DNA of 42,256 bases from Bdellovibrionales bacterium Ga0074139 (GTDB lineage: Bacteria; Bdellovibrionota; Bdellovibrionia; Bdellovibrionales; Bdellovibrionaceae), in the NCBI GenBank assembly GCA_001464795.1, contig LNEB01000009.1:1-42256 (forward strand). The letters are read 5' to 3'. The translations under genes were made by a program, and so were the position numbers. The notes beneath the pieces are model-generated. The model saw nothing but the letters and a program-made list of their open reading frames with translations. It ran no database searches and had not been told where the DNA came from. This document shows, in pieces, positions 1 to 33,345 of this stretch; the stretch's first letter is position 1, and each line of letters begins with the position of its first letter.

Positions 1-792
1 TACGCAAGCCGCAAAAGCTGCATTATCCAATGAACATTCATAAGTTACAACCGTAGGCCCAGAAAAAACTAAACTAGCCGTGGTTTGATTTGTTAAAGCG
101 GCTGGAGAGCTAGAAATAGTGACCACAGGAATTGTTAAATTAACAGTCCAAATGATTTCACTGACAAGACTTAGGTTGTTGATTCTGTCATAGGCACGGA
201 CTTTTAAGTTCTGATTCCCAGCCACTAAATTAGTTAAATTCACAGGCATGGTGCACAAAGAATAAACTTCTGAATTAAAAGCACACTCGAAGCGCTCCAC
301 TCCTGATAAATTATCCGTAGCATTTACTAAAATTGAAGCTGACGTTTGATTATTCACCGCAAGGGGTACCGGAGCTGTAGAGTCTTTTCGAAAAATTCTT
401 ACGGTCTCCCCGATCATTCCAGAAACGGTTTCAACCACAATTCGTACTCGGTGCTCACCATCGACAAGTTGATTCAAAACAAGTGACCTGCTGGAGCAAT
501 CAACGACCGGCTGTTGGTTGAACTGACACGTAATACTTCTAACTTCAGAGTCTTGCACATTTGCCACTCGGAATGGCAAAGTGTAAGTGGGAGTATTAAT
601 CAAGGTTGGAGTTGTGCTTTCAAAAGTAACAGACGGCGTTTGTACAGATGATAAAGACGAAAGATCTGACGTTTCGGTATTGACTTGAAACTGAGTGCCA
701 CAATTTTGAAATGAGAAAAGTAAAACTAGTGAAAAGAACCCACTTAAGACAAATCGTGAACCGAATCTTTTCGAAAAAAAAGACGTACCCAT
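1..792 (-). CDS. Lipoprotein with repeated Cys-pair Ig-like modules, partial
   Basis: The frame is open from an ATG at 792 to the left edge (264 codons, no stop), so the C-terminus is missing. The start is supported by GGGGGA four bases upstream (797-802). A basic N-terminus and hydrophobic stretch end in LLFSFQNC, giving a lipidated Cys at residue 31. Downstream are repeated beta-rich modules of roughly 70-80 residues, each with a Cys pair about 10 apart (ITCQFNQQPVVDC, FECAFNSEVYSLC, YECSLDNAAFAAC). This is the ECSLDG-type repeat seen in bacterial surface proteins with Ig-like modules. Likely an envelope-anchored, surface or periplasmic adhesive or structural protein. The QNC lipobox and the ribosome site are shared with the lipoproteins at 1387-3237 and 23462-25819, but the mature domains differ. 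Specific function unknown. Confidence 0.85.
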   Translation of the reverse strand, partial: MGTSFFSKRFGSRFVLSGFFSLVLLFSFQNCGTQFQVNTETSDLSSLSSVQTPSVTFESTTPTLINTPTYTLPFRVANVQDSEVRSITCQFNQQPVVDCSSRSLVLNQLVDGEHRVRIVVETVSGMIGETVRIFRKDSTAPVPLAVNNQTSASILVNATDNLSGVERFECAFNSEVYSLCTMPVNLTNLVAGNQNLKVRAYDRINNLSLVSEIIWTVNLTIPVVTISSSPAALTNQTTASLVFSGPTVVTYECSLDNAAFAACV

Positions 793-879
793 GGATTCCC
801 CCAAAGCTCTATTTTCTAGTAGGTATCATGGCGAATCAAGCTCACATCTCTTATTGGTACAGTCATAAAACAAGAAAGC

Positions 880-1379: not shown

Positions 1380-1392
1380 CCTTGAACTACCG
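1374..1392. terminator. Hairpin across two convergent stop codons
   Basis: CGGTAG-ccttgaa-CTACCG forms a 6-bp stem with a 7-base loop. Each arm contains the TAG stop of one convergent gene (plus gene ending 1379, minus gene ending 1387). No T-run follows on the plus strand and only ATTTTG follows on the minus strand, so termination efficiency is doubtful. Confidence 0.35.
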
Positions 1393-3237
1393 CATCTGCC
1401 AAACAGGCGGTGGCTGATAACCATTTGTTAAAATGTGTGAGTTATCATTTGTTGTCCATGTGGTCTGCCCAGTGAGAAAACCTGCGTTTGTTACACTGTT
1501 GGGGGCCACCGTTCGATTGCCCGTGGCCGTCAGGTTTCTTGTTCTTGGATAACCAGTCACGATAACAGCACCGTTACCACCCGTCAGCGGGTAGAGATAA
1601 TTATCTATAAACCACAGGCCGTTGAGTGGGTAAGCAGCGGCGTTTGCATTATCGCGCCCCTCTGTTCTGAATGGATTATTGCCCTCAATTTGATTTCTAG
1701 CGAAGTAGCCATTTTCCTGTGAGGCCTCAAATCGCACCACCACATTTTGTAAAGCACGGAACCTGGAATCCATAAACACCGTGCGCACATGGGGAGGCGT
1801 GGAGCCCTCTTCCCACCAGCGCATCGCCCAGCCATTATTAGTGCCTTCAGGGCGATTACTAATAATCTCAGTATTGGCAACGATGAAATCATTGTAACCA
1901 CCCGTTGCACCTCCAGTTAAAGCAGCAGTGATGGATGAACTGAGAAGCAAAATTCTTTCATTGGTAGGATTGCCTGTGTAAATAATAAAAGCAGAATCAA
2001 GCGCGTTCAGGCGCAATCTTTCGATCCGAATGTCTTGAACCGTGCCCACGGGAAATCCCCAAGGACCCGTCGTCGTAAGATTCGCCCCTTCGATCCAGAT
2101 ACGTTGAGCATTGAACACCGAGAATGCCGACAAAGACATTCTAGCTCCCGCCTGAAATACGATGTGTTTGTTGTTCCCACCCACCGTGATGCTTTCAAAA
2201 CGGTAGTCTCCAGGCGCAATAATAGTTCTTCGTCCGTTCACAGCTAGAGATGCTAAAATCTCAGCCTCAGTTCTGCAAATCACTTCACTTGTAATAACAG
2301 GATTTGCTGGTAGCTGAACATTAAACGGCACTCGGGCCACAGCGGCAGATAAATCGTAACCACCGGTTGAAGGAGGTGGCGGCGGAGGTGGTGGTGGTGC
2401 AACAACGGCACAGCTTTGATACCTAGTTTGTGCAACAACGGGACTGAACAATCCACTACTGGCTTGGCAAGTGGAAGTTACTCGGGCCGCATTACACTCG
2501 GTTTGTGAACCAGAAGACCTTGTAAAATAAGTATAAACAGTATTTTGTGTGACAGGCTGGCTAGAATCAGGATGCAAACATCTTTGCTCGCAAGTCGTGT
2601 ACAGTGGAGTTGATCCACTCCATAGACCCGTCGCCTGGCAGGTTCTTGTGACTTGGCTTCCGCACAGGGTAGGTGATGTGGCCGATTGTGCAGTAAATCC
2701 TGCGACAGTGGCTCCGGTCATATTTCCAGTTGGTACTGAGAGTCCAGGACCATTTGCATAAGCACAAACTTGACCTTGAACAAGGCAGGCGGAATGCAGA
2801 CCAAGTGCCGGAGTGAAAAGTCCAGAGAGTTGGTTACAAGTGCTTTGAACTCTGGCTGCGTTGCAAAGCTCTTGAGTGGCCGCCTGTGCGACAGAGTAGG
2901 AAGTTAAAGTTATTCCAGGGGCCGCGGCTTCATTAGTCACTGGGTGCCTGCAAAGTTGTTGGCAAGTGGGAACCAATTCTTCAGTCCGGTCCCATTGGCC
3001 ATCGATGCAGTTTTTTGTGATGAGGCTTCCACATAACTGAGGCTGCAAAGCTGTGGACATTATGTATCCAGTTTGAGTTGAGCCTGAAGTGCATACAGCG
3101 GTGTTAACAGAATTATTTAATGATTCAAGGGTTTGATTATTATCAACTTGAAACCCTTCCGTACAATTCTGAGAAAAAAGAAGTATCCCAAGTAGAGACA
3201 CGTGAATGAATACTTTTTTAACAGTATTGCGTTGCAT
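1387..3237 (-). CDS. Chimeric lipoprotein, Cys-rich N-half plus beta-helix C-half (copy 1)
   Basis: 616 residues from the ATG at 3237. This start was chosen over one 30 bases upstream because GGGGGA lies four bases before it and the paralogue at 23462 has the same layout. Signal LLGILLFSQNC gives a lipidated Cys25. Residues ~45-277 hold two copies of a two-part Cys-rich module (LCGS..TKNC..G.W...C..LC, then ELCNAARVQSTC..LSGLF). A run of nine prolines at ~279-290 leads to a C-terminal ~320 residues rich in short beta repeats (ITVGGNNKHIVFQAG, IWIEGANLTTT), resembling a pectin-lyase-type right-handed beta-helix. By hand the N-half differs at only about 25 of ~230 positions from the paralogue; the C-half is unrelated. 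Likely a surface protein with an exchangeable binding or catalytic tip. Confidence 0.85.
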   Translation of the reverse strand: MQRNTVKKVFIHVSLLGILLFSQNCTEGFQVDNNQTLESLNNSVNTAVCTSGSTQTGYIMSTALQPQLCGSLITKNCIDGQWDRTEELVPTCQQLCRHPVTNEAAAPGITLTSYSVAQAATQELCNAARVQSTCNQLSGLFTPALGLHSACLVQGQVCAYANGPGLSVPTGNMTGATVAGFTAQSATSPTLCGSQVTRTCQATGLWSGSTPLYTTCEQRCLHPDSSQPVTQNTVYTYFTRSSGSQTECNAARVTSTCQASSGLFSPVVAQTRYQSCAVVAPPPPPPPPPSTGGYDLSAAVARVPFNVQLPANPVITSEVICRTEAEILASLAVNGRRTIIAPGDYRFESITVGGNNKHIVFQAGARMSLSAFSVFNAQRIWIEGANLTTTGPWGFPVGTVQDIRIERLRLNALDSAFIIYTGNPTNERILLLSSSITAALTGGATGGYNDFIVANTEIISNRPEGTNNGWAMRWWEEGSTPPHVRTVFMDSRFRALQNVVVRFEASQENGYFARNQIEGNNPFRTEGRDNANAAAYPLNGLWFIDNYLYPLTGGNGAVIVTGYPRTRNLTATGNRTVAPNSVTNAGFLTGQTTWTTNDNSHILTNGYQPPPVWQMR

Positions 3238-3288
3238 TTCATCCCCCAAGACGAACGAGCAGAACACTCATTGCTATTATATTGATTA

Positions 3289-3304
3289 TGCAATGACCTT
3301 GCCT
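3289..3304 (-). promoter_or_regulatory. Sigma-54-type -24/-12 promoter
   Basis: On the minus strand AGGCAAGGTCATTGCA matches the RpoN consensus TGGCAC-N5-TTGCA, with GG and GC separated by exactly 10 bases. The predicted transcript start is near 3278, about 40 bases before the lipoprotein ATG at 3237. The same element lies at 23406-23421 before the paralogue. Confidence 0.6.
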
Positions 3305-3324
3305 GCTTAGATCGTCTAAGGCGT

Positions 3325-3338
3325 TATCGGCTGATGAA
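3325..3338 (-). promoter_or_regulatory. Conserved upstream element TTCATCAGCCGATA
   Basis: This 14-mer lies 20 bases upstream of the sigma-54-type core and is identical at 23372-23385. Between it and the core sits an inverted repeat TTAGA-CGA-TCTAA. Possible activator site. It is close to the core for a classical enhancer. Confidence 0.4.
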
Positions 3339-3469
3339 GAACTCGACATGAATAAAAATGTGACAGTTTTCTATTTATTCAAAGATTGTCTTATCACCAC
3401 TGATGCCTAATGGTTTCTATAAGTATTTTTATATGCTGGAATTGATGTTTGAAGTGTTATTAACATCCA

Positions 3470-20408: not shown

Positions 20409-21932
20409 ATGATCGTGGGAATTCCTAAGGAAACCTTTTTAGGTGAAAAAAGAGTCGCTGCAACACCTGAAACCATCGAAAAATTGATTAAATTAGGTTT
20501 TGAAGTTCACGTGGAACCTGGTGCAGGAATTGAAGCCAATATCAACGATGAAGCTTACTTAAAAAGTGGAGCACAAATTGTTTCTAATATTTCGGGCTCT
20601 GATATTTTCCTTAAAGTCCGTGCCCCCTCGCCTGCTGAAATTGAAAAATTAAAGCCTGGATCCACATTGATTAGTTTTATTTGGCCTGCACAAAACCCCG
20701 CGCTTCTAAAGCTTTTGTGCAATAAAAAAATCAACACCATTGCCATGGACTCAGTACCAAGAATTTCTCGGGCGCAAAAGTTAGATGCTTTAAGTTCAAT
20801 GGCTAACATTGCAGGTTACCGAGCTGTGATCGAAGCGGCTCACCATTTTGGACGATTTTTTACCGGGCAAATCACGGCCGCTGGAAAAGTGCCACCCGCA
20901 CAAGTGTTTGTCATCGGAGCCGGAGTGGCAGGACTTTCTGCTATCGGAACAGCGACCTCACTGGGTGCCATTGTGAAAGCCAATGACACCAGACCTGAAG
21001 TGGCTGACCAAGTGAAATCCATGGGTGGAAGTTTTGTGAATGTGAAAGTTCAAGAATCCGGATCCAGTCAAACAGGTTACGCTGTTATCATGAGTGAAGA
21101 GTATCAAAAGGCTCAACGAGTGGTTTTCGCTAAGCAAATTTCTGAGGCTGACATCGTCATCACCACAGCTTTGATTCCTGGCAGGCCAGCACCCAAATTG
21201 ATTACCACTGAGATGGTACAATCCATGAAACCTGGCTCTGTGATTGTGGATTTAGCTAGTGAGCAAGGTGGAAACTGCGAACTGACGGTGCCAGGCGAAG
21301 TGATTAAAAAGCATGGGGTCACACTGATTGGTTATACCGATCTTCCAAGCCGCTTAGCTAAGCAATCCAGTCAACTTTACGGAACGAATTTATTTAGGTT
21401 CTTAGAAGAAATGTGCGCTCAAAAAAATGGTGTCATCCATCATAATATGAATGATGAAGTGATCCGAGGCGCCACAGTGACTTTTTCAGGTGAGATCACT
21501 TGGCCCGCCCCCGCAGTTGCTATCAGTGCAAAGGCTTCAGAGGCAAAGCCTGAAGCCAGCACAAAAGAGGCCCATAAAAAAACAGAAGAGAAAGCAAACC
21601 CATTTGTGTTTATTATAGCAGCTCTTTTGCTGCTTCTTGTGGGGCTTTATGCACCTGCAATTTTTGTGACTCAAATCACTGTTTTTATTTTGGCTTGCCT
21701 GATTGGTTATATGGTGGTGTGGAACGTGACTGCTTCTTTGCACACCCCACTGATGAGTGTCACCAATGCCATCAGTAGCATCATTATAGTGGGTGCTCTT
21801 TTGCAAACTTCATCTGAAGATTTCTGGATTCAAATTCTATCTGGCTTTGCTGTGCTTCTGACGTCGATTAATTTGTTTGGTGGATTCGCTGTTACGAAAC
21901 GCATGCTTGATATGTTTAAGAAGGGATCTTAA
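20409..21932 (+). CDS. pntA: NAD(P) transhydrogenase alpha subunit
   Basis: 507 residues, close to E. coli PntA (510). N-terminus [20 protein letters not shown] is the alanine dehydrogenase/PNT N-domain hallmark. Domain I has [20 protein letters not shown] and the NAD site [18 protein letters not shown], then a helix-rich linker and four C-terminal membrane helices from about residue 395. With PntB it forms the inner-membrane pump coupling proton entry to hydride transfer from NADH to NADP+, supplying NADPH. AGGCAGG precedes the ATG. A weak promoter (TTGACC at 20346, 18 bases, TAGCTT) may drive the pair. Confidence 0.97.
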
Positions 21933-21934
21933 AT

Positions 21935-23341
21935 ATGACACAAAATTTAACTTCTATGATTTACTTGGGTTCTGCCGTTTTGTTTGTTTTAAGTCTTTTA
22001 GGACTGAATCACCCCGATACGGCCAGACGTGGTAATTTTTATGGCATGATCGGAATGGCGATGGCCTTAGCGGCGACTCTGTGGGCAGCAGGAGTGACCA
22101 ATTGGATTATGATTTTGGCAGCCCTTTTGGTCGGTGCAGTTATAGGACTTTTCGCTGCAAAAAAAGTGAAGACCACTCAACTGCCAGAACTCGTGGCACT
22201 GATGCACTCTTTGGTGGGACTGGCAGCTGTGCTGGTGGGTCTTTCTAGTTTCTTAGATCTCACAAAAGTTTTAGTAGGAGCAGAAAAAACCATTCATGAC
22301 GTGGAAGTCTACATTGGTATCATGGTGGGAGCCGTGACTTTTTCAGGAAGTTTGATTGCCTTTGGAAAACTTTTAGGATCGATCTCAGGCTCTCCGTTGT
22401 TATTGCCGGCCAGACATTGGCTGAACTTAAGTGTGCTAGTGGGAATCGCAATCTTGGGCTATCAATTTTTAAATGTGGATCATGATCAAGCACTGCTTTA
22501 TTTATTTGCCATGATTGTTCTTTCTTTATTCTTAGGTATTCACATGGTCATGGCCATCGGTGGTGCTGATATGCCAGTGGTGGTTTCCATGTTGAACAGC
22601 TACTCAGGTTGGGCCGCGTCTGCTACGGGCTTTATGCTGAACAATCATTTGTTGATCATCGTGGGAGCTTTAGTGGGATCCAGTGGTGCCATTTTATCAT
22701 CGATCATGTGTAAAGCCATGAATCGAAAATTTCTACATGTCATTGCTGGTGGCTTTGGCACCGACACAAAAAAAGCTTCAACAAATCCAAGTCAAGTTTT
22801 AGCTGGTGAAACAACGGCCATTTCATCTTTAGAAACAGCTGAGTTATTAAAAGATGCAAAGTCTGTAATGATCATTCCTGGTTACGGAATGGCTGTGGCA
22901 CAAGCTCAGCATACTGTTTTTGAAATCAGTCAGATTTTATCTAATGCAGGGGTGAATGTCAGATATGCTATTCATCCAGTGGCGGGACGAATGCCTGGGC
23001 ACATGAATGTGCTTTTGGCAGAAGCCAAAGTTCCTTACGATCAGGTTTTTGAAATGGAAGAAATTAATGAAGACTTTAAAAATGTGGACGTCGCGATCAT
23101 CATCGGCGCTAATGATATCGTAAATCCTGCAGCTCTTGATGACCCGAGTAGCCCCATTGCGGGAATGCCAGTTCTTGAGGTCTGGAAAGCCAAGACCTCC
23201 ATTGTTATGAAGCGCAGTATGGCCTCTGGTTATGCGGGTGTGGATAACCCACTCTTTTACAAAGATAACAACAGAATGTTATTTGGAGATGCAAAAACAA
23301 AGCTTGATGAAATTTTGCAGGCTTTGAAAGCAAATCTATAA
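21935..23341 (+). CDS. pntB: NAD(P) transhydrogenase beta subunit
   Basis: 468 residues (E. coli PntB 462). The first ~270 residues contain eight or nine membrane helices forming the proton channel, including MHSLVGLAAVLVGLSSF and GGADMPVVVSMLNSYSGWA. The C-terminal domain III binds NADP(H): PGYGMAVAQAQHTVFEI, YAIHPVAGRMPGHMNVLLAE, GANDIVNPAA, and KRSMASGYAGVDNPLF. All expected blocks are present, so the enzyme should be functional. It starts two bases after the pntA stop. The conserved element of the following lipoprotein promoter begins about 30 bases after its stop. Confidence 0.97.
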   Translation: MTQNLTSMIYLGSAVLFVLSLLGLNHPDTARRGNFYGMIGMAMALAATLWAAGVTNWIMILAALLVGAVIGLFAAKKVKTTQLPELVALMHSLVGLAAVLVGLSSFLDLTKVLVGAEKTIHDVEVYIGIMVGAVTFSGSLIAFGKLLGSISGSPLLLPARHWLNLSVLVGIAILGYQFLNVDHDQALLYLFAMIVLSLFLGIHMVMAIGGADMPVVVSMLNSYSGWAASATGFMLNNHLLIIVGALVGSSGAILSSIMCKAMNRKFLHVIAGGFGTDTKKASTNPSQVLAGETTAISSLETAELLKDAKSVMIIPGYGMAVAQAQHTVFEISQILSNAGVNVRYAIHPVAGRMPGHMNVLLAEAKVPYDQVFEMEEINEDFKNVDVAIIIGANDIVNPAALDDPSSPIAGMPVLEVWKAKTSIVMKRSMASGYAGVDNPLFYKDNNRMLFGDAKTKLDEILQALKANL

Positions 23342-23371
23342 ATCTGTCATCTTTTTCTTCATGTCTATAAA

Positions 23372-23385
23372 TTCATCAGCCGATA
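23372..23385 (+). promoter_or_regulatory. Conserved upstream element TTCATCAGCCGATA (copy 2)
   Basis: This 14-mer is identical to 3325-3338 (opposite strand). It sits 20 bases before the sigma-54-type core, with a near-palindrome TGAAA-CAC-TTTGA between, in the same position as TTAGA-CGA-TCTAA at the other locus. Possible activator site. Confidence 0.4.
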
Positions 23386-23405
23386 GAGCCTGAAACACTT
23401 TGAAC

Positions 23406-23421
23406 AGGCAAGCTCATTGCA
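23406..23421 (+). promoter_or_regulatory. Sigma-54-type -24/-12 promoter (copy 2)
   Basis: AGGCAAGCTCATTGCA fits the RpoN pattern with GG and GC 10 bases apart. Predicted start is near 23432, about 30 bases before the ATG at 23462. Only one base differs from the core at 3289-3304. Confidence 0.6.
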
Positions 23422-23461
23422 TATTTGTTTATATGCTGCCTTGTCTGATCTGGGGGATCCG

Positions 23462-25819
23462 ATGGCGATGAATTTTGTAAAAAAATTAGCCATTCATATG
23501 TCTCTTCTTGGGACACTGCTTTTTTCTCAAAATTGTACAGAGGGCTTTAAAGTTGATAGCAGCCAAAACATTGATTCACTGAACAGCGTAAACAGTGCTG
23601 TCTGCACATCAGGTGCAACGGAATCAGGATATTTAATGTCCACAGCTCTGCAGCCTCAGCTGTGCGGAAGTTTAATCACAAAAACCTGTATTAATGGTCA
23701 GTGGGACCGCTCGGAACAATTAGTTCCGACATGCCAACAACTTTGCAGACACCCCGTCACCAATGAAGCAGCCGCTGTCGGTATCACTTTTATTTCTTAT
23801 TCGGTAGCTCAAGCCGCCACTCAAGAATTATGTAACGCTGCCCGAGTGCAAAGTACTTGTAATCAAGTTTCAGGACTCTTTACCCCAGCACCAGGACTGC
23901 ATTCTGCTTGCCTCGTGCAAGGTCAAGTTTGTGCCTATGCCAATGGCCCTGGATTATCGGTGCCAAGTGGAAATATGACCGGAGCCACAGTGGCAGGCTA
24001 CACTGTACAATCCGCCACATCCCCTACACTTTGTGGGGCTCAGGTGACAAGAACTTGCCAAGCCACGGGTCTTTGGAGTGGAACCACACCTTTGTATACA
24101 ACTTGCGAGCAAAGATGTTTGCATCCTGATTCTAGTCAGCCTGTCACACAAAATACTGTTTATACTTATTTTACCAGAGCTTCAGGATCACAAGCAGAAT
24201 GTAATGCCGCACGCGTGACTTCCACTTGCCAAGCCGGCAGTGGATTGTTTGCTCCTGTTGTAGCAGCCACTAGATTTCAAAGTTGTACCGTTGTTGCAAC
24301 ACCTCCGCCACCAGGAAATAGCACTGCAGTTGTTCCTGCCGCTCAACTGGAATTTATTGATGCGAGTGGGGTCAGACAAAATGTGAGCGTGGTCGATGGA
24401 CAAACACAAATCACAGGGACAGCTCCATTTTTAGTGCAAATCGATGCCTCGGGAACTCGGGCTCCCGTCGCATTCGCAGCGCAAACTTTAAATACCGATG
24501 CTGACGCCTACTCGTTTCTGATGGTGGGATACCGTCTTCATTTTGGAGAAAATTTGAGTGGATTTTGGCGATACCCTGAAACCTTGGCTTATTCAAAAAA
24601 TGAAGAAACAGGACCTCCACTTTTTTCACGAGTTTACACAACTGTTGGCACCCATAACGCTAGATTAAAAGTTCGAGATGTATTAGGCAATGAATCCGTT
24701 CTTCGCTTCACTGTGAATGTCACAGCACCACCTGCTGCCACAAATATTCCCGTGTCAGCAGGCTCATGGCCCACTTTTCAAAGTGGTCGACGCTATACTT
24801 TGCAAGCAGGCGCTGATTACCGATCTTTTGGAACTTTAGAACTTGGTGGATTGCACAATGTGATTATTGAAAAAGTAGGCACTGGAGCTGATCCTCGAAT
24901 TGCAAATTTCAGTCCTGATGGTCGCAGCAAGTTCAACGCTACACAAAGATTTGAAGCCAGAGGTAGCCATCTTCGGTTGATTAACATCGATATCCAGCAC
25001 TTCACGGAAGGTCAAAGAGGTTTTGATTATGTGGCCGTGATCGGTGGATTGGTGAGACAGTTTTCTTTCGGCATTCAGAATTTTGCATGGGCCGAGGGCT
25101 CTGAAATTGTAAGAACAAATTGTAGATATTCACGAGGACTCTTTTTCCAAGATACCGAACTTCACAGCACGGCAGCTGGTAGTGGTTACGTCATGTTCGG
25201 CACTTACCATGGCTTTCACGCAAGAGGCACTCAGTTTGTTCACCGTGAAAATGGACCTACGACCTATTCCATGCTCAGACTCTATGGGCGTATGTTTTCA
25301 CTTCGCTTCAATAATTGGAGACTGGATGTGGACGGTAATGGAGCCAATGGAATCATGAATGGATTTTTTGCTTTGGGCGGCGCCACGCAAACCACCTGGC
25401 GCGACGACGATATGGCAGGACCTTTAAGTGCAACCTCTTATGATCAACACTATGGATTTGTTGGGGACAAAATGTTTCTGCAAAACAATCAGTTTTACGG
25501 GCAAAACTCTTTTCTGACGAATGCTCATAACACCTTGGGCGGAGGAAATCCCACAGCCACTAATTTAGTTCGCCCCCGACTTGTGGGAGCTGAAGATAAT
25601 GTGTTTTTCCCTTCTGGCAATGTGGCAAGATCCATTCAAAATGCTGAGATTGCAGGCCAACATAATTTTTGGCGTAACAACCGAAAGAATATGGGACTTG
25701 GTGAATTCGTTACAGCCACATCAGGAGCCCCCAACAGAGGCGTTGGTGATTCAGTGACGTTCCATGGACCCTATCATTTCAGTGACCAAAATCCACGCCC
25801 TGTACCGACTGGGTTTTAG
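23462..25819 (+). CDS. Chimeric lipoprotein, Cys-rich N-half, PKD-like and beta-helix C-half (copy 2)
   Basis: 785 residues from the first ATG after GGGGGA (23452-23457). Signal LLGTLLFSQNC gives lipidated Cys25, the same position as in the copy at 1387-3237. Residues ~45-278 carry the same two-fold Cys-rich module (about 89% identical by hand count). A short proline linker (PPPP at ~281) leads to an Ig/PKD-like domain (~295-425: PFLVQIDASGTRAP, VYTTVGTHNARLKVRDVLGN). Then ~350 residues of beta-repeat sequence follow (YRSFGTLELGGLHNVIIEKV, LRLINIDIQHF), probably a right-handed beta-helix of polysaccharide-binding or lyase type. Catalytic residues cannot be assigned. Likely surface-exposed. 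Confidence 0.85.
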   Translation: MAMNFVKKLAIHMSLLGTLLFSQNCTEGFKVDSSQNIDSLNSVNSAVCTSGATESGYLMSTALQPQLCGSLITKTCINGQWDRSEQLVPTCQQLCRHPVTNEAAAVGITFISYSVAQAATQELCNAARVQSTCNQVSGLFTPAPGLHSACLVQGQVCAYANGPGLSVPSGNMTGATVAGYTVQSATSPTLCGAQVTRTCQATGLWSGTTPLYTTCEQRCLHPDSSQPVTQNTVYTYFTRASGSQAECNAARVTSTCQAGSGLFAPVVAATRFQSCTVVATPPPPGNSTAVVPAAQLEFIDASGVRQNVSVVDGQTQITGTAPFLVQIDASGTRAPVAFAAQTLNTDADAYSFLMVGYRLHFGENLSGFWRYPETLAYSKNEETGPPLFSRVYTTVGTHNARLKVRDVLGNESVLRFTVNVTAPPAATNIPVSAGSWPTFQSGRRYTLQAGADYRSFGTLELGGLHNVIIEKVGTGADPRIANFSPDGRSKFNATQRFEARGSHLRLINIDIQHFTEGQRGFDYVAVIGGLVRQFSFGIQNFAWAEGSEIVRTNCRYSRGLFFQDTELHSTAAGSGYVMFGTYHGFHARGTQFVHRENGPTTYSMLRLYGRMFSLRFNNWRLDVDGNGANGIMNGFFALGGATQTTWRDDDMAGPLSATSYDQHYGFVGDKMFLQNNQFYGQNSFLTNAHNTLGGGNPTATNLVRPRLVGAEDNVFFPSGNVARSIQNAEIAGQHNFWRNNRKNMGLGEFVTATSGAPNRGVGDSVTFHGPYHFSDQNPRPVPTGF
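24101..24174 (+). repeat. 74-bp near-identical patch shared with 2522-2595
   Basis: This stretch matches the reverse complement of 2522-2595 at 73 of 74 bases, whereas flanking parts of the two lipoprotein genes differ at many third positions. It encodes TCEQRCLHPDSSQPVTQNTV and the next few residues. It looks like a gene-conversion tract. Confidence 0.7.
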
Positions 25820-30641: not shown

Positions 30642-31484
30642 TTATCTTTTTGCACAAAGAGCAAACACTTCAGCCCGTGCATTTTGCAATCTTGGGGTAT
30701 CGCAAGATAATGTCCACCCAAGGTTATCGGCGGTTGGTTGAGAGGCTCTAATAAACATAAATCCTGTGCCGGGAGGCCCCAGACTGATACAGCCTCCACC
30801 ACCTGAAACTAAATACTCATCAGCTTGGCAACTGACTGAGGCCGTTGGCCACCGCCAAGCCGTCACACTGTTAGGTCTTCGGGTCACCGTCAGCGCTGTG
30901 GTGCTAGCACCCATGCAACTAGTAATACTGGTGCTTGTTGGAATAGTAATATCACCCGCCATCACTGTCTGAATTCGCACGGGCTTTAAAGCCCTCACCA
31001 TACCTGCAGGATTCAGTGCAATTTCCCAGTAACCTTTAAAATTTCCTGCACTACCTTCTGTAATGACAAGTCTAATGGAATCAATGGTCAGTGAATTGGT
31101 TGCGGGTGAAATTCTCTGCCCCACCTGAGCAACGACAGGGCCTGGCACACCTGATCTAACTCCAGCATATAAGGGGGTTGAGGGCGTCAACACAGCAGGC
31201 GTGGTGCTTGTTATGGTTGTGGAGTTAAATGTCAGTGGTGCTGGATTATTTAAAACATGCTGGCAAGTGGAGCCATCAGAAAGAGCTGAGATTAGTAATT
31301 TTTCAAAATCAAGAATAGCTATTTTTTCGTTTAATGCTTTCATTTCTTTCATTTGATTAACTTGAGACTGAGCAAAAAAAGCAATCATCATGGACATGAT
31401 ACCGATGGCTACAAGGGCTTCGATGATACTTAAGCCAGATTGATTTTTGATGAGTCGATAACTCAAGGCTGCATCCACATACAA
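30642..31484 (-). CDS. Type IV pilin-like protein with Cys-rich C-terminal domain
   Basis: 280 residues. Prepilin signal: basic leader ending in Gly17, then LSIIEALVAIGIMSMMIAFF with Glu at mature position 5 and a hydrophobic helix, the class III prepilin peptidase signature (type IV pilins and pseudopilins). The last ~75 residues (VSCQADEYLVSGGGGC to NLGWTLSCD and EVFALCAKR) resemble a small disulfide-linked domain often found at the tips of pilin- and fibre-associated proteins. The start overlaps the fibre-like gene; ATG 31484 or TTG 31466 (TTGA overlap with the stop) are both possible. Likely a minor pilin or adhesin at the envelope. Confidence 0.75.
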   Translation of the reverse strand: MYVDAALSYRLIKNQSGLSIIEALVAIGIMSMMIAFFAQSQVNQMKEMKALNEKIAILDFEKLLISALSDGSTCQHVLNNPAPLTFNSTTITSTTPAVLTPSTPLYAGVRSGVPGPVVAQVGQRISPATNSLTIDSIRLVITEGSAGNFKGYWEIALNPAGMVRALKPVRIQTVMAGDITIPTSTSITSCMGASTTALTVTRRPNSVTAWRWPTASVSCQADEYLVSGGGGCISLGPPGTGFMFIRASQPTADNLGWTLSCDTPRLQNARAEVFALCAKR

Positions 31485-32680
31485 CTATAGGTTGTGTTGA
31501 TTGTGTTGGTGACTGTGGTGTTACACACAACTTGATTGGCAGTTCCCGAGGCTCTACAGAAAACACTATTCGTATTAGCTGATGATAGAGCGGCAGCAGG
31601 AGAGCAGTAAACGGCCACTCCGGTGCTTGCAGGAATTCCTGTGCAAGTTCTGGTTGTGGCAGTCCTTGTGATCACAGATGAGGCGATGGTACAAGCTCCC
31701 ATGCCCGTCACAGCTGTGCCGGTGGCACCGATTCTAACTTTTCCAGTGCCCGCTTGAACGATTGTCGCAGAAGTAGTGGCCGTATTACCGATAGTTGTTG
31801 TGGTACCAGCCGCGTTTGAAAAAGTGCTAGCTGTGATGACATTGGCTGCAAAATTTCCTGTGGCATCTCGAAGGACAAGCCGGCTGGCGGTGTTGGTACT
31901 AACAGCATCCGCAATGTTTGCTGAAACTAAAGTGCTTGGTACCCACTGCGATAAAGCATTGTTCCAAACCAAAACTTGGGAATTGGTGGGAGCTGTTGTT
32001 GAAATATTTTGTCCTCTCAAAGCAGTGACCACAGTTGCACTTTGAGTTCCTGACACGTCCCCGCTCAAATTTCCTGAAAAATTAACTGGTGACGGTACAG
32101 CACCAAAAGTTCCATCTCCCAAAAGCACATCGGTGGCAACCCCGCTGGTGTTCACCGCAGAAACAGAGCCTAAACCTAAATTGGTTCTGGCACCAGCAGC
32201 TGTTGTTGCGCCAGTGCCGCCACTGCTAATCGGTAAAGTGATTGATAAAGATTTTGCCACTTCGGCAAGATTGGCATGTATGGCCAAAGGCGAGGGAACA
32301 AGATCTATTCCTGCAAATGTGGCATCATCCGCTCCGCCGAAGCCATCTTTATTGACGTCAACCACCACATCCACAATAAAATTATCACTGTTAAGACTAT
32401 GATTAAACAAACTGGCTTCTAAAGTGTTCGATAAAGCCTGACAGTTGGAAGTACCCGCAAGTAAACTCGAAAATATTCCCGAGATCACAGGCACGTTAGC
32501 TGCAGAATCTTGGCACCAGATCACAGTGGAATTTCTTTTAATTAAAAACCGCATGGGATAACCAGAAACATCATTAACTGCCGTGGTCCCCACTTTTAAA
32601 AAACCCTGCACGGAAAGTTTATTATTAAAAACCTGGGCTTGTGAAAAACATGAAATAAGTAAAATGAACAGAATTCTCAT
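31463..32680 (-). CDS. Secreted phage-tail-fibre-like protein
   Basis: 405 residues, signal peptide MRILFILLISCFSQAQ. N-terminal domain (~20-140) follows the surface-fibre pattern QGFLKV...YPMRFLIKRNSTVIWCQ...GIFSSLLAG, with a possible Ca-binding loop DVNKDGFGGADD at 108-119. ITLPISSGGTGATTAAGART then NLGLG (~148-171) is the tail-fibre signature of phage receptor-binding proteins. Thr/Ser/Ala-rich repeats and a C-terminal Cys-rich section (TRTCTG, VYCSPA, VFCRAS, VVCNTT, YSCMWMQP) follow. It probably forms trimeric surface fibres for attachment. Overlaps the lipoprotein gene by four bases (ATGA) and the pilin-like gene. Confidence 0.75.
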   Translation of the reverse strand: MRILFILLISCFSQAQVFNNKLSVQGFLKVGTTAVNDVSGYPMRFLIKRNSTVIWCQDSAANVPVISGIFSSLLAGTSNCQALSNTLEASLFNHSLNSDNFIVDVVVDVNKDGFGGADDATFAGIDLVPSPLAIHANLAEVAKSLSITLPISSGGTGATTAAGARTNLGLGSVSAVNTSGVATDVLLGDGTFGAVPSPVNFSGNLSGDVSGTQSATVVTALRGQNISTTAPTNSQVLVWNNALSQWVPSTLVSANIADAVSTNTASRLVLRDATGNFAANVITASTFSNAAGTTTTIGNTATTSATIVQAGTGKVRIGATGTAVTGMGACTIASSVITRTATTRTCTGIPASTGVAVYCSPAAALSSANTNSVFCRASGTANQVVCNTTVTNTINTTYSCMWMQP

Positions 32681-33345
32681 GGGCTCATCTCTTTCACAAT
32701 GCTTGGAAACCCAACAGTTAAACGAAAAGACGTATTTCCTGTTGAAGCCACTGAAGTCACAGTACTATCACTCACTGAAAACTGTCTGGAATCAAGAGAC
32801 CCACCCACTAAACTGGATGATGAGGCAGATCCAGCGGAGGTTCTAAAACCTGGGCTAGGATACAGAGGGTGACCAAATGCCAAGGACCTAAGCACGGCTG
32901 AAATGGAAATTGAGAAATTAAGGCTGTCACTGGCCTGTCCATCTGGTGATAAGGCCGCAAGGCTGACCGCGGTACTACCAACACTTAAACAAGTTCTGAT
33001 AGTAAAGGTTCCAGCCGAGAGCTGGATATTTGATACAGCTGGGCCAATGACTCGTAAACTAGAAGTGGTCGCAAGTTCATAGGTTCCTATGAAAGTGACT
33101 TCCGCTTCGTTAAGAAATGATAAACAAATACCAGTGCTCAAATCCGGCTGAAAACTAAGTGCGGCTGCAAAGGGGGCCGTGAGGTTGACCGGTGATCCAT
33201 TCGCCACATAGGAAATAGCGGTGAGTTCAAGTGCCGCTGGTTTTTTATCATTGCCTTCGATTAATTTTCCAGCTTCAGGTGGAGCTCCACAACCTTGTAA
33301 AATCAGCAGTAAAAATGTGAGGGAAACCAACCGTGGTAGCGCCAT
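32677..33345 (-). CDS. Lipoprotein heading the fibre-pilin operon
   Basis: 222 residues. Signal MALPRLVSLTFLLLILQGC, a canonical lipobox with Cys19, unlike the QNC type elsewhere in the window. The mature part is beta-rich and Ser/Thr/Val/Ala-rich with two Cys (TGICLSF, IRTCLSV), like an Ig-type envelope domain. It is the first gene of a coupled set with the fibre-like and pilin-like genes (four-base overlap at 32677-32680), so it may anchor or assemble the fibre. No family recognised. Confidence 0.75.
   Translation of the reverse strand: MALPRLVSLTFLLLILQGCGAPPEAGKLIEGNDKKPAALELTAISYVANGSPVNLTAPFAAALSFQPDLSTGICLSFLNEAEVTFIGTYELATTSSLRVIGPAVSNIQLSAGTFTIRTCLSVGSTAVSLAALSPDGQASDSLNFSISISAVLRSLAFGHPLYPSPGFRTSAGSASSSSLVGGSLDSRQFSVSDSTVTSVASTGNTSFRLTVGFPSIVKEMSP

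What the first reader, a model, noticed from the sequence alone, without database searches (positions are those of the whole stretch)
23462..25819. Domain-swapped lipoprotein pair: constant N-half, variable C-half
Residues 1 to ~280 of the products at 1387-3237 and 23462-25819 differ at only about 25 of ~230 mature positions and reach the proline linker at the same residue. After the linker the proteins are unrelated (beta-helix of ~320 residues versus PKD-like plus beta-helix of ~500). DNA in the constant half differs at many silent sites, so the protein is under strong purifying selection. This looks like a modular surface display platform with exchangeable tips.
Basis: partly seen in the sequence, partly recalled or inferred. 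Interest (0 to 1): 0.8.

Follow-up and report, generated by a model that had tools for sequence, protein, structure and literature searches.

The report
Shared lipoprotein stalk, unrelated tips
One bacterial genome carries four secreted lipoproteins that share a conserved cysteine-rich membrane-proximal half but end in four unrelated domains, which looks like a reusable stalk onto which evolution has fitted different working parts; a similar trick is already reported for other proteins of predatory bacteria.

Summary
The two proteins (1387-3237 lies on the minus strand) share residues 1-280 at 86% identity, with 25 differences in 232 positions after Cys48, 92 silent codon changes there, dN about 0.07 and dS about 1. 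They lose all similarity at the proline linker. The N-half is a lipobox cysteine plus 16 cysteines in four ~55-residue modules (a-b-a-b). The genome holds two more proteins with nearly the same cysteine spacing but other tips: a DUF1595/1592/1588/1585 (PSD/PSCyt) domain and a weakly alginate-lyase-like domain. PSD homologues with readable N-termini in related genomes have a similar lipobox without the modules, so the cassette was inserted there. Single a- or b-modules also precede other domains in two related genera. The two-unit N-half was not found outside this species among 369 phylum genomes. Best reading: a disulphide-rich stalk cassette that tethers varied extracellular domains to the envelope. 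Bdellovibrio MAT fibres already show the same logic with unrelated proteins.

The parts
23462..25819 (+). Lipoprotein A (P0001, 785 aa): constant N-half plus PKD-like and long C-terminal tip
   Evidence: N-half 86% identical to B
23462..23536 (+). Signal peptide ending in a non-canonical lipobox FSQNC (Cys25)
   Evidence: sequence; QNC-type lipobox in the paralogues and family relatives
23603..23920 (+). A, repeat unit 1 (modules a1+b1, 8 Cys)
23927..24295 (+). A, repeat unit 2 (modules a2+b2, 8 Cys)
24299..24313 (+). A, proline linker TPPPP where similarity to B ends
24389..24715 (+). A, PKD-like stretch (residues 310-418)
   Evidence: 29% identity, E 6e-8 (pairwise), to a stretch of a G037 lipoprotein that overlaps its Pfam PKD match (PF00801 E 2.7e-6)
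24743..25771 (+). A, C-terminal region, beta-helix proposed but not shown
   Evidence: no Pfam or credible PDB match; AF2 pLDDT under 50
1387..3237 (-). Lipoprotein B (P0002, 616 aa): same N-half, different tip
2776..3093 (-). B, repeat unit 1 (a1+b1)
2401..2769 (-). B, repeat unit 2 (a2+b2)
2371..2397 (-). B, proline linker
1390..2370 (-). B, C-terminal tip (about 327 aa), beta-helix proposed
   Evidence: no homologue in 148 related genomes; AF2 strands at about 21-residue spacing near residues 336-390 but pLDDT only about 50
23322..23423 (+). Upstream stretch of A alignable with upstream of B (likely shared promoter/leader)
   Evidence: local alignment score 100 against a shuffle maximum of 43
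3287..3384 (-). Upstream stretch of B alignable with upstream of A; contains the dyad TTAGACGATCTAA (3307-3319)

Best explanation
A and B are two of four lipoproteins of this species built on one N-terminal cassette: signal peptide, lipobox cysteine, short flexible stretch, then four cysteine-rich ~55-residue modules (a-b-a-b). Shown: the architecture, the near-invariant cysteine spacing, purifying selection on the cassette, and its junction to four unrelated C-terminal domains. Inferred: the cassette is lipid-anchored in the outer membrane and works as a stable, disulphide-stiffened spacer (stalk) that holds extracellular domains, probably carbohydrate- or polymer-acting ones (alginate-lyase-like, PKD-containing, cytochrome/PSD), away from the membrane. 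New tips, or the cassette in front of existing tips, were exchanged by recombination at the linker. For A and B the duplicated unit included about 100 bp upstream, so promoter, signal and stalk probably travelled together.
For: Four members in the genome with 17 cysteines each in the N-half and near-identical spacing. Tips do not match each other. C4 tip passes Pfam cut-offs for PSCyt3, PSD5, PSD2 and PSD4, and its neighbour for DUF1552. Homologues of that tip in 26 of 66 family genomes; those with a readable N-terminus have lipobox then domain without the modules. C12 tip resembles an alginate lyase (6kfn, E 0.0027). G040 has one a-module plus Kelch-like; G007 has one b-module plus another large domain. 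dN/dS about 0.07-0.09 over the N-half. Module tree puts M1/M2 duplication before the gene duplications. Shared upstream of A and B.
Against: Surface location, lipidation and disulphides are untested; the lipobox has Asn at -1, which is not the textbook form. No close relative of the full N-half outside this species, so exchange was not watched across lineages. The N-half could be a binding domain rather than an inert stalk: 86% identity at dS about 1 is stronger conservation than a mere spacer needs.
Confidence: 0.66

Rival explanations
1. The constant half is not a spacer but a functional module: it binds one partner (an envelope polysaccharide, an export or sorting machine, or another cell) and so addresses four different domains to the same place.
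For: 86% protein identity at dS about 1; the modules carry conserved non-cysteine motifs such as YFTRASG and HPD in the b-modules; a weak complement-type signature (Sushi E 0.0057, HRM 0.0058; complement C2 0.007), and such modules often bind ligands.
Against: No ligand known and no shared partner gene next to the loci; Sushi and HRM scores are below curated cut-offs; related PSD lipoproteins do without the modules.
Confidence: 0.25
2. Plain history: A and B are old duplicates of one gene, one of which had its 3' part replaced once; there is no platform.
For: A and B are only 20 kb apart and share upstream DNA; tips and downstream DNA are unrelated.
Against: Two further members with other tips and the same cassette, single modules with yet other domains in related genera, and a domain family in which the cassette is clearly an added piece.
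Confidence: 0.07
3. Recent gene conversion keeps the two N-halves alike.
For: One stretch of 12 identical codons near residues 226-237.
Against: Silent differences are spread along the whole N-half and average dS about 1.
Confidence: 0.02

Closest known systems
Mosaic adhesive trimer (MAT) fibres of Bdellovibrio bacteriovorus (PMC10769870)
   Same: Shared N-terminal part with exchanged C-terminal tips: Bd2133 and Bd1334 are 75% identical in the fibre and unrelated at the tip, and the authors conclude that tips are swapped in evolution.
   Different: MATs are trimeric beta-helix fibres, many with an S74 chaperone; here the shared part is a cysteine-module lipoprotein cassette, with no S74 match; the word lipoprotein does not occur in the main text of that paper.
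CLFNG-type four-cysteine repeats of related genomes (e.g. G037 L013, G034 L028), without a Pfam match above cut-off
   Same: C-x-NG-G-x-V-x-AY-C-RTC-x-G-x-GS-C pattern like module a; A4 profile hits L013 at E 3.7e-4.
   Different: Those occur as long homogeneous arrays, not as an a-b-a-b cassette joined to other domains.
PSD/PSCyt (DUF1595/1592/1588/1585) lipoproteins with DUF1552 partner
   Same: The C4 tip and its neighbour pass the Pfam cut-offs.
   Different: Homologues with readable N-termini lack the cysteine modules.
Sushi/CCP or hormone-receptor (HRM) modules of animals
   Same: Four cysteines per module, R-x-C...G-x-W...C signature.
   Different: Scores below curated cut-offs and no structure.

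Membership tests
Bacterial lipoproteins | Signal peptide followed by lipobox cysteine | tested here: inconclusive
   Hydrophobic N-terminus then FSQNC; Asn at -1 is atypical but the QNC/QNC-like form recurs in the paralogues and in many family proteins
MAT superfamily | S74 chaperone (in the S74 group) | tested here: not met
   No Pfam hit to it
MAT superfamily | Trimeric beta-helix fibre | not testable with these tools
   Models of both proteins had pLDDT near 30
Sushi/CCP | Pfam Sushi score at or above the gathering cut-off | tested here: not met
   17.5 against 20.7 bits for the C4 N-half
Sushi/CCP | Disulphides C1-C3, C2-C4 | not testable with these tools
   No reliable model
PKD domain (tip of A) | Pfam PKD above cut-off | tested here: inconclusive
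   A itself has no hit; its homologue L022 does, 27.7 against 23.5 bits
PSD/PSCyt (tip of C4 paralogue) | DUF1595, 1592, 1588, 1585 above cut-off | tested here: met
Alginate lyase (tip of C12 paralogue) | Clear sequence homology and catalytic residues | tested here: inconclusive
   E 0.0027 to 6kfn over about 117 residues; catalytic residues not checked
Right-handed beta-helix (tips of A and B) | Predicted coil structure | tested here: inconclusive
   Low-confidence models; no convincing hydrophobic periodicity

The most novel reading that the evidence does not exclude
An undescribed display cassette of bacterial, complement-like cysteine modules that a possibly predatory lineage has joined to functionally different extracellular domains, giving them a common anchor and address; the a and b modules would be a new domain family.
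Probability: 0.3. Interest if true: 0.6.

Novelty: new variant of a known kind. Interest (0 to 1): 0.4.

Why it matters
It gives a clean natural example, within one genome, of one secreted scaffold joined to at least four unrelated domains, with homologues of one tip that lack the scaffold. It also points to an unannotated family of four-cysteine modules. If the N-half alone fixes location, it would be a ready-made anchoring part and a way to find this bacterium's surface proteins.

Tried and rejected
Two genome-contig scans gave no named relative of the N-half; the second, with a CLFNG-repeat protein, only re-found the G037 protein, an unnamed MAG. Viral contigs scanned with the second repeat unit, PHROGs scanned with whole A, B and C12, phages searched with the tip of A, and plasmids searched with B: all negative. 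Hydrophobic periodicity of the tips was not convincing. A shared dyad TTAGACNNTCTAA upstream of B and the C4 paralogue was followed: three perfect sites in the genome, two of them upstream of family members, but the pattern was picked post hoc, its reversed control has twice as many sites, and the third site is near unrelated genes. Gene conversion was rejected on dS. Dating the A/B duplication by orthologue dS was not done: the one protein tried, PntB, gave no match in genus mates, and that search had no positive control.

Full report
Observation. The products of 23462-25819 (+) and 1387-3237 (minus strand) align over residues 1-280 with 86% identity, E 2e-171, and then stop matching. From Cys48 on, 25 of 232 positions differ while 92 further codons differ silently. 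dN is 0.07-0.09 and dS 1.0-1.2, with silent changes spread along the whole N-half. Tip DNA and downstream DNA score no better than shuffles, and tip proteins show no significant match. If the tips had diverged from one ancestor while the N-half kept 86%, some similarity should remain, and A has a PKD-like stretch for which B shows no sign; the tips were therefore most likely exchanged (inference).

Anatomy of the constant half. It holds exactly 17 cysteines: the lipobox cysteine and 16 in four ~55-residue modules with four cysteines each, arranged a-b-a-b. In the module tree the second units form one group (support 94/93), and the first units of C4 and C12 resemble each other (72%) more than their own second units, so the tandem duplication is probably older than the gene duplications. 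Module a resembles the CLFNG...RTC.NG.LSGS repeat that occurs as arrays in related genomes. No Pfam or NCBIfam family passes its cut-off on the N-half; the best are Sushi (17.5 against 20.7 bits) and HRM, and complement C2 in the PDB at E 0.007. I treat the complement resemblance as a lead only.

Other members. The genome (2.9 Mb, 15 contigs; the window is the whole of contig 9) holds two more. The C4 protein (L007 5988-9041) carries a cytochrome-like stretch and DUF1595/1592/1588/1585 domains, next to a DUF1552 gene. The C12 protein (L008 6337-8475, minus) has a tip with a weak match to an alginate lyase. Cysteine spacing is the same in all four apart from the first repeat unit, where A and B have shortened loops.

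Relatives. The two-unit N-half was not found in the other genomes searched (148 relatives, 66 of the family, 369 of the phylum), including two of the same genus, one of them only 67% complete. Single modules recur: G040 has one a-module before a Kelch-like domain, and G007 has one b-module before a large domain with only a sub-threshold Pfam hit. The PSD domain of C4 has matches in 26 of 66 family genomes, some of them only to its cytochrome-like start. Where the N-terminus could be read from the fetched loci, several of these run from a similar lipobox straight into a cytochrome-like stretch and the domain, with no cysteine modules; one instead has a long N-terminal extension of Ig-like appearance (L038, my reading by eye). 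The cassette is thus an added piece in C4. The PKD stretch of A matches a G037 lipoprotein-like protein whose PKD is confirmed by Pfam and which lacks the N-half.

Promoter region. About 100 bp upstream of A and B are alignable (score 100 against a shuffle maximum of 43), which suggests that promoter, signal and stalk were duplicated together.

Mechanism. Most likely the cassette is a lipid-anchored, disulphide-stiffened spacer to which different extracellular domains are joined. Shown: anatomy, selection, four tips, insertion relative to PSD homologues. Inferred: lipidation, outer-membrane or surface position, and the spacer role. A binding or addressing role of the N-half is the main rival.

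Known context. Bdellovibrio MAT fibres already show a conserved N-terminal part with swapped tips, including a 75% identical pair with unrelated tips (PMC10769870). This family works like that but is not shown to be one: the S74 feature was tested and not met, and the trimeric fibre fold could not be tested. That the source is a Bdellovibrio relative is my inference from protein style and genome sizes; no named relative was obtained.

Noticed in passing
window 20409-23341: pntA/pntB-like transhydrogenase genes directly precede lipoprotein A; PntB gave no match at E 1e-20 in four related genomes including two of the same genus (no positive control in that search).
   Followed up: partly
window 3307-3319: Dyad TTAGACGATCTAA upstream of B; perfect TTAGACNNTCTAA sites occur at three places in the genome, two of them upstream of family members (the other such one at C4:81890).
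   Followed up: yes
window 1-804: Another QNC-lipobox protein, with a weak DUF7743 match, cut off by the contig end on the minus strand; no match to the constant half was reported there.
   Followed up: no
window 30642-33345: Cluster of small secreted or prepilin-like proteins on the minus strand, including one with a lipoprotein-like N-terminus.
   Followed up: no
L007 9044-10453: DUF1552 (HXXSHH) gene directly after the C4 paralogue, with an SRREFLK twin-arginine-like N-terminus.
   Followed up: partly
L025 1288-3186 (G007): Lipoprotein with one b-module followed by a large domain with only a sub-threshold match to a PcRGLX N-terminal domain.
   Followed up: partly
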